Assembly (NCBI GenBank): GCA_028716005.1
Contig: JAQUQQ010000004.1
Coordinates: forward strand, 1 to 35,651
Length of the DNA stretch: 35,651 bases
Direction: 5' to 3'
From: Candidatus Moraniibacteriota bacterium
Lineage (GTDB): Bacteria; Patescibacteriota; Minisyncoccia; Moranbacterales; UBA11712
The notes beneath the pieces were generated by a model. That model was not told the DNA's origin and did no database searches. It saw only the letters and a list, made by a program, of their open reading frames with translations. The translations under genes were made by a program, and so were the position numbers. This document shows, piece by piece, positions 13,670 to 17,877 of this stretch. How positions within the stretch are numbered: position 1 is the first letter of the stretch; every line of letters starts with the position of its first letter.

Positions 13670-15730
13670 TTATTTCAGTTTTTGAAACACTTCTTTCCAG
13701 GCATCAAGATATTTGTAATCGGAAGGCTTAAAAACATCAGGAGTGAGAAGAGCAAAATTATCAAGAGCGGTATCGATTCTTTTTAGGAAGTAATCTATCC
13801 TTTCTTGCTCTGGAAGATCAGCGATTTCCTCGACTTCGTTTAACCTAATCTCCAGGAAATGAAGCTTTGTATTGGCAGTCAAGATAGATTCTTGAGTATT
13901 CTTTCCTCCGCAATACTTACAATCACACACTCCAATTCTTTCTTTTATCAGGTCAAATTTCCCAGGATCTTTCCGGAGGATTGGAACGAGTTTGAGCAAG
14001 GAGGGATAATAATAACGTTCGTACATATTGAATGGGGCTTTCTCCTCGCTGTATAAATCTTCAGAAAAAGTATCAAATCTTGCAGCACCAGAAGTAAACC
14101 CTGCAACTCCAGCACACATCAATCCAAGTCCAATTCCATTAACTCTCCCTGCGACTACTGGCTTTCCGGTGTTTGATTGAAGCTCACGAAGTAAAGAAAT
14201 ATAGTTAAAAAGTGTAGATCGAGAACTATTTTCATCAATGCAATCCACATAAACAATATATCCATCGCAATCGAATATTGAGAACGTGTTTAAAATATGC
14301 TTGCGTTCTCGGTCGTTGTTTAGAGATGAGTGGTGTATGCAAATACCAGCGTAGATCGGTTTTTTTTGTAAATCTTTAGTCTCATTACGATAATCAACAG
14401 CTTCTTTCAACAGCTTAACGTCCAGATCAAACCATTCAGCGTGCGGGTTAACTGTTGTAAGTGAAACACTGCTATTATGCGTATAGTGAAAGGGCGCAAG
14501 AAGTATGTCTGCATCCAGCGCTTTCTCGGTGTCGATAACTTTTTTCACATACTCTTTTTGCTCTTTATAGCTCTTCAAGTTGTCCGGAGTTATCGGCTGG
14601 AAGTCACCCCTTGCATAAGAAAGTTTTTTTAATCCCTCCACATCGGAAAAGGTGTCATAGGCAAGTCGCATTGTTGCAGGGTCGATAATTTTGCAGACGT
14701 TTTTGTTTTCTCGGATAAGCTTAAGCAAGCCTTTTTGATGATCAGCTAAGTTGGCAGGAAATTCAACAAAGAATTTCTCTTTATGCGCAGGAAGGAATTT
14801 TTCAAGAGTACTCTTGTCGTCATAAAGTCTCAAAATAAATCTGGGACTTAAATCATATTCCCTTTTCGTGAGCACAACCCTTTCTTTTTTCAACGACTCA
14901 CGAAGCTGGGCAATATTAATGAAACGTTCATATGCGTATTTCTCAAGACATTGCAAAATAATGTTTTCGGTAGTATTTGTTATCTCTGTTATTCTCCTCC
15001 TTGGAGGGATCGCGGGTTCATTCTTTATCTTATCGATAAGCTCTGGCTCTGATTGAAAATCATACGGCAATTGACCAGTCAGCATCTCATATAAAACAAC
15101 CCCAAGAGTGTAGATGTCGGAACGCCTATCAATGTGTTTGCTATCGACGATTTGCTCGGGAGACATATAAGGACTTGTGCCGACAAAATCTCCCGTGCTG
15201 GTAAGTGAAGTATAGTCGATAATTTTGGAAATACCAAAGTCTGATATTTTTATCTTTCCCTCTCCGTCGATAAGAATATTTTCCGGTTTAAGGTCTCTGT
15301 GAACCACCCCTGACACACCATTGGAAACTGCCGCGTGGTGCAAAGCCTCTATTCCATCCATCATCTGACAAAAAAAACCCAAAGCTTCTTTTTCGCTTAA
15401 TTTTTCTTTTTCTTCAAGCAATTCTCTGAGGTTTGTCCCTTCGACGAATTCCATCACGAGGAAGTGATGTTTGGACCCGTCAATATCGATTATAAAATTA
15501 TCAACATATTGTACGAGGTTTTTATCCTTAACTGATTTTATTATATCTATTTCTCTTTGTATCCTGTTATCAGTGCCTCTCCTATATTCTTTTAAAACAT
15601 AGGCTTCCCTGAAAAGCTTCAGCGCATAGAAAGCGGCGTCTTTTTTTGCTTTATACACAACACCAAAACCTCCGTCATTGACAAAATCGATGATGGCGTA
15701 TCCATTTACTGTTTTCCCGATTAGATTCAT
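13670..15730 (-). CDS. Hanks-type Ser/Thr protein kinase fused to a C-terminal TIM-barrel / TGT-like domain
   Basis: GGFGVVYKAK, HRDLKPENI, DFG, SPYMSPEQ, DIYTLGVVLYEMLTG; C-terminal KPVVAGRVNGIGLGLMCAGVAGFTSG and CDCKYCGG…H. ATG at 15730 preceded by GGAGG; track start 15772. Confidence 0.85.
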   Translation of the reverse strand: MNLIGKTVNGYAIIDFVNDGGFGVVYKAKKDAAFYALKLFREAYVLKEYRRGTDNRIQREIDIIKSVKDKNLVQYVDNFIIDIDGSKHHFLVMEFVEGTNLRELLEEKEKLSEKEALGFFCQMMDGIEALHHAAVSNGVSGVVHRDLKPENILIDGEGKIKISDFGISKIIDYTSLTSTGDFVGTSPYMSPEQIVDSKHIDRRSDIYTLGVVLYEMLTGQLPYDFQSEPELIDKIKNEPAIPPRRRITEITNTTENIILQCLEKYAYERFINIAQLRESLKKERVVLTKREYDLSPRFILRLYDDKSTLEKFLPAHKEKFFVEFPANLADHQKGLLKLIRENKNVCKIIDPATMRLAYDTFSDVEGLKKLSYARGDFQPITPDNLKSYKEQKEYVKKVIDTEKALDADILLAPFHYTHNSSVSLTTVNPHAEWFDLDVKLLKEAVDYRNETKDLQKKPIYAGICIHHSSLNNDRERKHILNTFSIFDCDGYIVYVDCIDENSSRSTLFNYISLLRELQSNTGKPVVAGRVNGIGLGLMCAGVAGFTSGAARFDTFSEDLYSEEKAPFNMYERYYYPSLLKLVPILRKDPGKFDLIKERIGVCDCKYCGGKNTQESILTANTKLHFLEIRLNEVEEIADLPEQERIDYFLKRIDTALDNFALLTPDVFKPSDYKYLDAWKEVFQKLK

Positions 15731-15861
15731 TGTATATTCCTTACCTCCTTTTTTTAATTTTAGCACATACAAAAATACTCGCCAGCTCTCTCCTGCTCGT
15801 GCTGCCTACTGAGGTTTCTTACTCTTATTATTTGGCTACTTGCGCGTTTTTTTTGAAATAG

Positions 15862-15867
15862 TATAAT
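15862..15867 (+). promoter_or_regulatory. -10 box (TATAAT) for the FGE-protein transcript
   Basis: GAAATAGTATAATGAAG, ~196 nt before ATG. Confidence 0.55.
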
Positions 15868-15887
15868 GAAGTCAACAATTTACGCCT

Positions 15888-16020
15888 AAACTCCGACTTT
15901 TCGCCGGAGCATGGCATCTAAAACCAACCAAGATTTAGTCTCCTCGTCGGAGCACCTTGGTTGGTCATATCCTGAAAGGGATATGGGTGGCCTGAAAGGG
16001 TCATCGTCGGCGGGGAGTTT
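15888..16020 (+). ncRNA. Structured 5' leader RNA (candidate riboswitch or cis-regulatory element)
   Basis: Outer AAACTCC/GGAGTTT closing helix; 10-bp ACCAACCAAG/CTTGGTTGGT stem (15923-15932/15956-15965); abutting 20-nt GAAA-loop hairpins at 15966-15985 and 15986-16005. Confidence 0.6.
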
Positions 16021-16062
16021 TGTGTTTTCCGCTGGCACTTTAACCGGCTAAAGGAATCCAAA

Positions 16063-17877
16063 ATGAAAAACAAAAGAGCAGCCGCAATCCTGGCCATTAC
16101 ACTTCTCTTCGCTGCGGTTTCTCCGGCTCTGGCTGCCACGAAAGTCAATCGCTCAAATATTGTCATCACTCAAATTGACGGCACCACCATCACCGCAATG
16201 AAAGGCAGCGCAGCCTACATCATCAATGCTGAAAGAGCAACTCTTAAGAATGCCAAGAATAAAACCGCCACCCTCGACCAGTTTTTTACGGGAGATCAAA
16301 TTGATGTTTCCGGAACCAGAGGAACAGACGGCGCCATTATCGCCAAAACCATCCAGAACCGCTCCCTCAAAGATGAAAGCCTCACTCGCGGAGCCATCAC
16401 CGACGCTTCCGTTGCCGCCAATGCCAACATCTCCGCTTCCAAATTGAACCTTTCGAATGCCATCACGGGAGATGATATCCAAAGCCACACTATAACGAGC
16501 GACAAATTGGCCGACGGCATCACTCTCACCACCGGAAACATCACCAATCTCAACCTTGGAACCCACACCATCTCTGACGGAAACTTCACGGGGAACTGGA
16601 ATTGGAACGGTGGAAGTCTTTCCAATATGATAGACCTTTCCGCTACCGGAAACATCTCGGCTCTCACCTTTACTTCCACCCAGACCACTGGAACCGCCCC
16701 TTTCACCGTTGCTTCCGCAACCAAAGTCGCGAACCTCAACGCCGATCTTTTGGATGATCTCCATGTCTCAACAATCGGAGGAGTGAGCGTCATCCCCGCC
16801 ACCGATTCTTCGGGAAACCTGACCCTCACTAATGCCAAACTAAATATCGGAACCCTGAAGCTTGATTCCCAAACCACTGCTCCCTCAGCCGAAGAAGGGA
16901 AAATTTATTACAACTCCACCCAAAAAACCGCCAAGATATACAACACCCAGGCCAGCTCGACTGATGAATACCTGGATGTTTCCACCGACCCCCATGTCCA
17001 GCCCACTAGTTGCCCCGATGGGTACGTTCCCGTTCCCGGAGATGTCCGCTACGGCACCGGTGGTGGATTCTGCATCATGAAGTATGAGGCTAAATGTGAT
17101 TTTGATAATGATGGGGTTGGAGACACTTCGCCGGCGACAAACAGCCACGACGGCTACGACAATAGTTCACAAGCCTGTACCGCATTGCACGTCAAGTCGC
17201 TTGCAACAGGCTATCCTATTGTCAACATTTCCCAGACCACTTCTATTTCTTACTGCTCCGGCCTCGGCGCTGGTTACCATCTCATCACCAACAACGAGTG
17301 GATGACGATGGCCAGGAACATTGAGAACATTGGTGACAACTGGACGTCGGGGACAGTGGGAACAGACGGACTTTTTCGGGGGCATTCTGACAGTGTTCCT
17401 AATGTGGCTCTGACAGCTAATTCAGACGATTCACAGGGTTATGAAGGCACCGGACAATCAGCACCCTCAGAGCAAAGAAGAACGTTTACTCTTTCCAACA
17501 GTGAAACGGTTTGGGATATTGCAGGAAACATGTATGAGTGGATTTTCGATACGATTAAAAGAAAAGATGAGCCTCATTCAATCACTGGTCCTGATAATAG
17601 TTGGAGTCAGGAAGAATTTGATACGATCGACAATTATGGAACGATGAGTTATGCCAGTTTGCGTCCGGGAAATCCTGGCTGGAATTCGACACAGAATATG
17701 GGAAAGCTTAACACAATATATAATCCGAACGGCGATACGGGTACAACTATCTATGCCTTTATGCGTGGAGGATTTTTTCGCGATGGTACTGTCGCTGGCC
17801 TCTTTACAATACGTTTAGATGATACTCCTAGTAGTTCATATAATACTCGCAGTTTTCGCTGCGTATACCGCCCGTAA
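16063..17877 (+). CDS. Exported protein with tail-fibre-like region and C-terminal FGE-sulfatase/CLec-fold domain
   Basis: Signal peptide; DUF5666-like N-region; TGTAPFTVASATKVANLNADLLDDLH tail-fibre motif; NNEWMTMARNIENIGDNW, WDIAGNMYEWI, AFMRGGFFRDG…SFRCVYRP FGE motifs. Confidence 0.88.
   Translation: MKNKRAAAILAITLLFAAVSPALAATKVNRSNIVITQIDGTTITAMKGSAAYIINAERATLKNAKNKTATLDQFFTGDQIDVSGTRGTDGAIIAKTIQNRSLKDESLTRGAITDASVAANANISASKLNLSNAITGDDIQSHTITSDKLADGITLTTGNITNLNLGTHTISDGNFTGNWNWNGGSLSNMIDLSATGNISALTFTSTQTTGTAPFTVASATKVANLNADLLDDLHVSTIGGVSVIPATDSSGNLTLTNAKLNIGTLKLDSQTTAPSAEEGKIYYNSTQKTAKIYNTQASSTDEYLDVSTDPHVQPTSCPDGYVPVPGDVRYGTGGGFCIMKYEAKCDFDNDGVGDTSPATNSHDGYDNSSQACTALHVKSLATGYPIVNISQTTSISYCSGLGAGYHLITNNEWMTMARNIENIGDNWTSGTVGTDGLFRGHSDSVPNVALTANSDDSQGYEGTGQSAPSEQRRTFTLSNSETVWDIAGNMYEWIFDTIKRKDEPHSITGPDNSWSQEEFDTIDNYGTMSYASLRPGNPGWNSTQNMGKLNTIYNPNGDTGTTIYAFMRGGFFRDGTVAGLFTIRLDDTPSSSYNTRSFRCVYRP

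What the first reader, a model, noticed from the sequence alone, without database searches (positions are those of the whole stretch)
15888..16020. Structured leader RNA with twin abutting GAAA-tetraloop hairpins
Seen: after a TATAAT box the ~190-nt 5' UTR folds by eye into an outer AAACTCC/GGAGTTT helix, a 10-bp helix (ACCAACCAAG/CTTGGTTGGT) with an inner CTCC/GGAG hairpin, then two contiguous 20-nt hairpins (CATATCCU-GAAA-GGGATATG; GGUGGCCU-GAAA-GGGUCAUC). They have equal 8-bp stems and share CCUGAAAGGG. An alternative CTCCG/CGGAG hairpin (15891-15895/15905-15909) competes with the outer helix, suggesting a switch. I do not recognise a known riboswitch.
Basis: partly seen in the sequence, partly recalled or inferred. 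Interest (0 to 1): 0.7.

Follow-up and report, generated by a model that had tools for sequence, protein, structure and literature searches.

The report
LOOT leader RNA with pseudoknot switch
The folded stretch in front of this surface-protein gene is a copy of LOOT, a known but unexplained RNA of tiny Patescibacteria; comparing 130 copies shows that it folds into a pseudoknot and, in about a quarter of them, carries a strand that can cover the start site of the gene behind it, so it probably acts as a gene-specific on/off leader.

Summary
The hairpins are real. 15883-16005 is a full-length match to Rfam RF03000 (LOOT; 77.2 bits, cut-off 46.4), a candidate class without known function, so 'not a known RNA' is wrong. 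Comparison of 130 non-redundant LOOT loci, nearly all from Patescibacteria, shows features missing from the Rfam model. (1) A pseudoknot helix P5 joins the P2 apical loop to the segment just 3' of the model (here 15940-15950/16007-16017). It covaries strongly and replicated in held-out loci. (2) The conserved P1 internal loop resembles the 11-nt GAAA tetraloop receptor, and the P3 loop is GAAA in 126/130; the four GGAA exceptions are the four with an altered receptor. The 'twin' GAAA of P4 is coincidental. (3) In 29/130 loci the P2 3' strand is complementary to the start-codon region (0-1/130 in other windows of equal size); homologous genes with different P2 sequences have matching start regions. 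(4) In about a quarter, including this one, the P5 3' strand can instead form a downstream hairpin, P7. Best explanation: a cis-acting 5'-UTR riboregulator of accessory genes, with mutually exclusive helices gating translation. Trigger and direction are unknown; no experiment exists. The strong start-region match is absent in this window.

The parts
15862..15867 (+). TATAAT -10-like box; predicted transcription start about 15874
   Evidence: read in the sequence; formal -35/-10 scan did not pass; -10-like boxes modestly enriched upstream of LOOT RNAs, 101/130 against 63/130 shuffled
15883..16005 (+). LOOT RNA, Rfam RF03000, full model
   Evidence: cmscan 77.2 bits, gathering score 46.4, E 4.7e-13
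15884..15915 (+). P1 hairpin; internal loop CCUAAA (15885-15890) / CAUGG (15910-15914) resembles the 11-nt GAAA tetraloop receptor (CCUAAG/UAUGG), with A.C in place of the G.U wobble
   Evidence: canonical receptor sequence from PMC10004510
15916..15922 (+). J1/2, A-rich single strand
15923..15932 (+). P2 5' strand ACCAACCAAG
15940..15950 (+). P5 5' strand CTCCTCGTCGG (P2 apical region), pseudoknot with 16007-16017
15956..15965 (+). P2 3' strand CTTGGTTGGT; in other loci this strand can pair with the start-codon region (P6)
15966..15985 (+). P3 hairpin with GAAA loop (15974-15977), proposed to dock into the P1 receptor
15986..16005 (+). P4 hairpin, here with a GAAA loop; loop not conserved in the family
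16007..16017 (+). P5 3' strand TCGGCGGGGAG, outside the Rfam model
16018..16024 (+). conserved U-rich segment UUUUGUG (loop of P7)
16006..16036 (+). P7 hairpin GTCGGCGGGGAG/TTTTCCGCTGGC (16006-16017/16025-16036), mutually exclusive with P5
16050..16055 (+). Shine-Dalgarno-like AAAGGA, 7 nt before the ATG at 16063; partly paired in a small hairpin in the predicted fold
16063..17877 (+). downstream gene: 604-aa protein with signal-peptide-like N-terminus and C-terminal FGE-sulfatase domain

Best explanation
The element is a LOOT RNA acting in cis as the 5' leader of the gene at 16063. SHOWN by comparison: P1, P2, P3, P4 plus a pseudoknot P5 between the P2 apex and the segment 3' of P4; coordinated change of the P3 loop and the P1 internal loop; in a subset, a segment at the start codon complementary to the P2 3' strand (P6), and in another subset a downstream segment complementary to the P5 3' strand (P7). 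INFERRED: P1 and P3 dock as receptor and tetraloop, making a compact core in which P2 and P5 form an H-type pseudoknot. The P2 3' strand can exchange its partner between the upstream P2 5' strand (start region free, gene on) and the start-codon region (P6, gene off); where P7 exists, it takes the P5 3' strand away from the core. The helices are nearly equal in energy, as expected of a bistable switch. In this window P5 and P7 are both strong, and P6 is weak (9 pairs with three G-U at 16042-16050), so here the switch would work mainly through P5/P7, whose link to translation or termination is not established. The trigger (ligand, protein, temperature, co-transcriptional timing) is unknown. Because the genes behind LOOT are diverse accessory genes, a general signal is more likely than one metabolite of one pathway.
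For: LOOT identity. P5: own pairing mean 24.1 against 13.8 with swapped partners, 117/130 at score 18 or more against 12%, 0/20000 permutations; 199 cells changed on both sides against 64 +- 8 shuffled. An all-against-all segment test finds three strong pairings (P2, P5, P2-3'/start region) and one that extends P5. P6: 29/130 at score 20 or more against 0.6% swapped; 29/130 in the start-codon window and 0-1 in seven other windows of equal size; matched sequence mostly ends 0-4 nt before the ATG, and flanking identity is no higher than with swapped flanks, which fits selection for pairing better than DNA duplication. Genes of one DNA methyltransferase family (L015, L036, L051, L065, L107) and a homologous pair (L063, L097) have different P2 sequences, each matched by its own start region. 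P2 and P6 duplexes differ by 3 kcal/mol or less in 22/29. Held-out loci: P5 14/15, P6 4/15 against 0 swapped; 0 and 2 of 20000 permutations. P7: 34/123 against 5.8% swapped, including this locus. Receptor: P3 loop GAAA in 126/130, and the four GGAA loops coincide with the four CCCAAC/AGUGG receptors. Cis position: 111/127 have an ATG-started ORF of 80 codons or more within 120 nt downstream on the same strand, against 28 divergent ORFs upstream.
Against: No transcript, probing or reporter data. The strong start-region pairing is absent in about three quarters of loci and in this window (best 16.5, reached by about 6% of swapped pairs). P2 is local and forms first, so P6 needs something to open it. 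Mutual exclusivity is read from pairing, not shown; P5 and the lower part of P7 might coexist as a loop contact. The four GGAA loci come from two related genomes and may be one event. Rfam files LOOT as 'Gene; sRNA', so a trans-acting role is not excluded.
Confidence: 0.5

Rival explanations
1. LOOT is a separate trans-acting small RNA that ends at the U-rich segment after P5 and merely sits in front of genes.
For: Rfam type 'Gene; sRNA'; the GC-rich P5 helix followed by a U-rich run resembles a terminator; copies are patchy and their neighbours diverse.
Against: P6 and P7 partners lie downstream of the U-rich run, so the selected sequence extends past it; the distance to the next start codon is tightly distributed (median 56 nt, 5-95% 29.5-79.5); the U-run is interrupted by a common G; no local intrinsic terminator was found in the window.
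Confidence: 0.2
2. Transcription attenuator: P5 plus the U-rich segment ends transcription, and failure to form P5 lets the gene be read.
For: P5 is GC-rich and directly followed by a U-rich segment in nearly all loci; P5 has 9-18 pairs in most.
Against: The P5 5' strand lies about 55 nt upstream with two hairpins between; a G in the U-run is common; P7 is transcribed after the U-run and cannot prevent ending there; P6 at the start codon points to translation.
Confidence: 0.2
3. Metabolite riboswitch with a conserved ligand pocket.
For: Conserved core and expression-platform-like alternative pairings in a 5' leader.
Against: Downstream genes share no pathway, and the most conserved internal loop is better explained as a tetraloop receptor.
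Confidence: 0.12
4. DNA-level feature: the P2/start-region match is a short direct repeat left by insertion of a mobile leader, or serving deletion of the leader.
For: Patchy distribution, several copies per genome, different genes even within a genus; start-region copies are mostly identical to P2 5' (300 identical, 31 unpaired and 6 wobble-preserving differences).
Against: Identity ends at the helix edges, the copy sits at the start codon and not elsewhere, and homologous genes keep the match with different sequences.
Confidence: 0.1
5. Chance structure or non-functional sequence.
For: None found.
Against: Rfam E 4.7e-13, covariation, fold z -4.4.
Confidence: 0.01

Closest known systems
LOOT RNA (Rfam RF03000; from the ZWD alignments, Rfam 14 paper PMC7779021)
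   Same: Full-length match with P1-P4; same host group; 5' of genes.
   Different: The Rfam model ends at P4 and holds neither P5, P7 nor the start-region pairing; function unassigned, typed as sRNA.
GAAA tetraloop / 11-nt receptor (UAUGG:CCUAAG; PMC10004510)
   Same: CC-UAA-N / N-AU-GG internal loop in P1 and a near-invariant GAAA loop in P3; four loci carry the canonical sequence.
   Different: Here CCUAAA/CAUGG, an A.C in place of G.U; docking not shown; a sub-group pairs GGAA with CCCAAC/AGUGG.
Translation-controlling riboswitch expression platforms
   Same: A core strand with two exclusive partners, one overlapping the ribosome-binding region.
   Different: No ligand known, and no shared pathway among regulated genes.
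Intrinsic terminators and attenuators
   Same: GC-rich helix followed by U-rich sequence.
   Different: Helix strands are about 55 nt apart around hairpins, and the U-run carries a G.

Membership tests
LOOT RNA (RF03000) | score above the curated gathering threshold over the full model | tested here: met
   77.2 against 46.4 bits, model 1-121/121
LOOT RNA (RF03000) | P1 with conserved CCUAA/AUGG internal loop, P2, P3 with GAAA loop, P4 | tested here: met
LOOT RNA (RF03000) | close relatives hold it too | tested here: met
   21/96 relatives, 83/380 genomes of the phylum, 33/131 of the order
Riboswitch | direct binding of a ligand that changes the fold | not testable with these tools
   needs in-line or SHAPE probing
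Riboswitch | expression platform with mutually exclusive helices in a 5' leader | tested here: inconclusive
   P2/P6 and P5/P7 complementarity shown by comparison; exclusivity and effect on expression not shown; P6 weak in this locus
Riboswitch | downstream genes linked by one pathway or ligand | tested here: not met
   42 Pfam families among 127 downstream proteins, the largest in 6 of them
GAAA/11-nt tetraloop-receptor motif | receptor sequence CCUAAG:UAUGG and a GAAA loop elsewhere in the molecule | tested here: inconclusive
   this locus CCUAAA:CAUGG with GAAA; canonical in four loci; loop and receptor change together in one sub-group; docking not testable here
Intrinsic terminator | short local GC-rich hairpin followed by an uninterrupted U-run | tested here: not met
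   no site found in 15780-16080

The most novel reading that the evidence does not exclude
LOOT is a widespread Patescibacteria-specific riboregulator that carries a gene-specific antisense strand: a tetraloop-docked pseudoknot core holds a strand complementary to the start region of whatever accessory gene follows, and that strand is retuned as the gene changes, so one RNA chassis serves DNA methyltransferases, surface proteins and many unknown genes under a common signal.
Probability: 0.35. Interest if true: 0.8.

Novelty: new member of a known kind. Interest (0 to 1): 0.6.

Why it matters
LOOT has been an orphan candidate RNA since it entered Rfam; the only papers in the held library naming RF03000 are two Rfam database papers. 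The pseudoknot, the receptor-like loop and the start-codon complementarity turn it into a testable regulatory device in ultra-small, mostly uncultivated bacteria, and give exact compensatory mutations to make. If right, it would be a common cis-regulator of accessory genes in Patescibacteria.

Tried and rejected
Outer AAACTCC/GGAGTTT helix: no better than swapped partners across 123 loci. Twin GAAA hairpins as a conserved pair: the P4 loop varies. Pairing of the A-rich leader or J1/2 with the U-rich run: no signal in the segment test (up-ur z 0.9; J1/2-ur not among the top pairs), though invariant pairing would escape it. Trans target in the same genome: AACCAACCAAG occurs once more, inside the coding region of an ORF, antisense to it, at no start site; treated as chance. 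A diversity-generating retroelement behind the FGE-domain gene: no reverse transcriptase in the 86%-complete genome. DNA relatives in phage and plasmid records: none. A file of the whole genome was not available. The original LOOT description (doi 10.1093/nar/gkx699, from memory) is not held, so whether it mentions P5 could not be checked.

Full report
WHAT IS THERE. The stretch 15883-16005 (+) is a full-length match to Rfam RF03000, LOOT RNA (77.2 bits against a gathering score of 46.4, E 4.7e-13), the only match to any of 4227 families near the site. It lies between a TATAAT box (15862-15867) and an ORF with an AAAGGA ribosome-binding-like site at 16050-16055 and ATG at 16063. The leader folds at -72.6 kcal/mol against -54.0 +- 4.2 for shuffles. 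The host is a 1.06-Mb metagenome-assembled genome with one LOOT copy. LOOT occurs in 21/96 relatives, 33/131 genomes of the order and 83/380 of the phylum, with up to seven copies per genome, patchily even within a genus. A scan of 84,980 species genomes with one LOOT P3 sequence found 35 loci, nearly all labelled Patescibacteria lineages. The gene behind our copy has an FGE-sulfatase domain and a signal-peptide-like start; no full-length relative was found in 20 relatives.

DATA SET. I fetched 140 LOOT loci and kept 130 non-redundant ones with a clear P2. The control throughout is swapping partners between loci, which keeps composition and conserved motifs.

PSEUDOKNOT P5. The apical part of P2 pairs with the segment directly 3' of the Rfam model: own score 24.1, swapped 13.8, 0 of 20000 permutations as high, 117/130 at score 18 or more against 12% of swapped pairs. 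In an 86-sequence alignment, 13 of 15 P5 pairs have changes on both sides, with 199 such cells against 64 +- 8 shuffled, and sliding the register destroys the signal. Here it is CTCCTCGTCGG (15940-15950) with TCGGCGGGGAG (16007-16017), -17.6 kcal/mol as a duplex. The Rfam model ends at P4, so this helix is outside it. Rfam 15 lists LOOT among the families improved with CaCoFold (2 covarying base pairs), and the CaCoFold paper notes unusual cross-covariation in LOOT (PMC11701678, PMC7657543).

TETRALOOP AND RECEPTOR. The conserved P1 internal loop is CCUAA(A/C/G)...(C/U)AUGG; the known 11-nt GAAA receptor is CCUAAG:UAUGG (PMC10004510). Four loci have the canonical receptor; the commonest form replaces G.U by A.C, which is isosteric to it (established knowledge). 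The P3 loop is GAAA in 126/130. The other four have GGAA, and exactly these four have CCCAAC...AGUGG; they come from two related genomes, so this may be one event. In one of those genomes a GAAA/CCUAAG:UAUGG copy also exists (L029). The likely reading is that P3 docks into P1. The P4 loop is GAAA (43), GCAA (31), GUAA (13), UUCG (9) and others, so the 'twin' look of this locus is coincidence.

START-REGION PAIRING P6. In 29 of 130 loci the P2 3' strand is complementary (score 20 or more) to a segment around the start codon; swapped pairs reach this in 0.6%. Windows of the same size further downstream or upstream give 0-1 per 130. The matched segment mostly ends 0-4 nt before the ATG (a few overlap or follow it), and identity with P2 5' does not exceed background outside the helix, which argues for selection on pairing rather than duplication. 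Among five homologous DNA methyltransferase genes and one homologous pair of small membrane proteins, P2 and start region differ between loci but match within each. The P2 and P6 duplexes differ by 3 kcal/mol or less in 22/29. In 15 held-out loci, P5 is found in 14 and P6 in 4 against none swapped (0 and 2 of 20000 permutations). An unbiased test of all segment pairs gave P2, P5 and P2-3'/post as the strong signals, then a segment pair that extends P5.

P7. The P5 3' strand can instead pair with a segment just downstream (34/123 at score 18 or more against 5.8% swapped, z 9.6). This locus has it: GTCGGCGGGGAG (16006-16017) with TTTTCCGCTGGC (16025-16036), as in the minimum-energy fold. P6 is weak in this locus: nine pairs with three G-U at 16042-16050, score 16.5, which about 6% of swapped pairs reach.

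GENES. LOOT is followed on the same strand by an ATG-started ORF of 80 codons or more within 120 nt in 111/127 loci (median 56 nt), against 28 divergent ORFs upstream. The proteins are diverse: DNA methyltransferases (six N6_N4_Mtase, one C5, one D12), DUF2726, nucleases, zinc-ribbon proteins, an integrase, secreted proteins, and many without a family. No shared pathway is visible.

MECHANISM. Shown: the helices and their covariation, the loop/receptor coincidence, and the position of P6 and P7 partners. Inferred: docking of P3 into P1; an H-type pseudoknot core from P2 and P5; partner exchange of the P2 3' strand (P2 or P6) and the P5 3' strand (P5 or P7) that gates translation initiation. 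Unknown: trigger, direction, and whether transcription also ends after P5. The start-region logic applies directly to about a quarter of loci; for this window the P5/P7 pair is the stronger candidate.

LIMITS. No transcript or probing data. Swap tests control composition but not all shared ancestry. Loci were found with the Rfam model, so divergent relatives are missing. The original LOOT paper was not available.

VERDICT. A new member of a known orphan RNA class, with comparative evidence for a pseudoknot, a receptor-like tertiary contact and, in part of the family, gene-specific pairing with the start region. I did not find the last described in the held literature.

Noticed in passing
L015 downstream of its LOOT (about +48 to +94): A second, partial LOOT-like P1/P2 copy (agcccaacc...gagtggttataaaatccatcc) lies between the first LOOT and the start codon, so elements can be tandem.
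   Followed up: partly
L142 (record labelled TM6, complete genome) and L157 (contig labelled Woesearchaeota): LOOT in two records labelled outside Patescibacteria, both similar to copies already in my set; the first may be a labelling matter, the second possibly a mis-binned contig.
   Followed up: partly
L178 and L179 (IMG/VR contigs): LOOT RNAs on two contigs classed as viral (82.5 and 82.4 bits); L179 also carries a tRNA. Whether phages carry LOOT was not settled.
   Followed up: partly
L099, L106, L127, L133, L136, L137: A LOOT sub-type without P4: the P5 3' strand (such as CAAGCGGGTGGCC before the T-run) is force-fitted to P4 by the Rfam model.
   Followed up: partly
L073 (G207:C3): Two LOOT RNAs about 240 nt apart, each before a small homologous ORF: an apparent duplication of a LOOT-gene unit.
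   Followed up: no
window 13670-15772 (-): Divergent neighbour gene encoding a serine/threonine protein kinase with a long C-terminal extension (Pfam Pkinase, E 3.8e-51).
   Followed up: partly
window 17700-17874: The C-terminus of the FGE-domain protein (RGGFFRDGTVAGLFTIRLDDTPSSSYNTRSFRCVYRP) recalls variable regions of diversity-generating retroelement targets, but no reverse transcriptase was found in this incomplete genome.
   Followed up: partly
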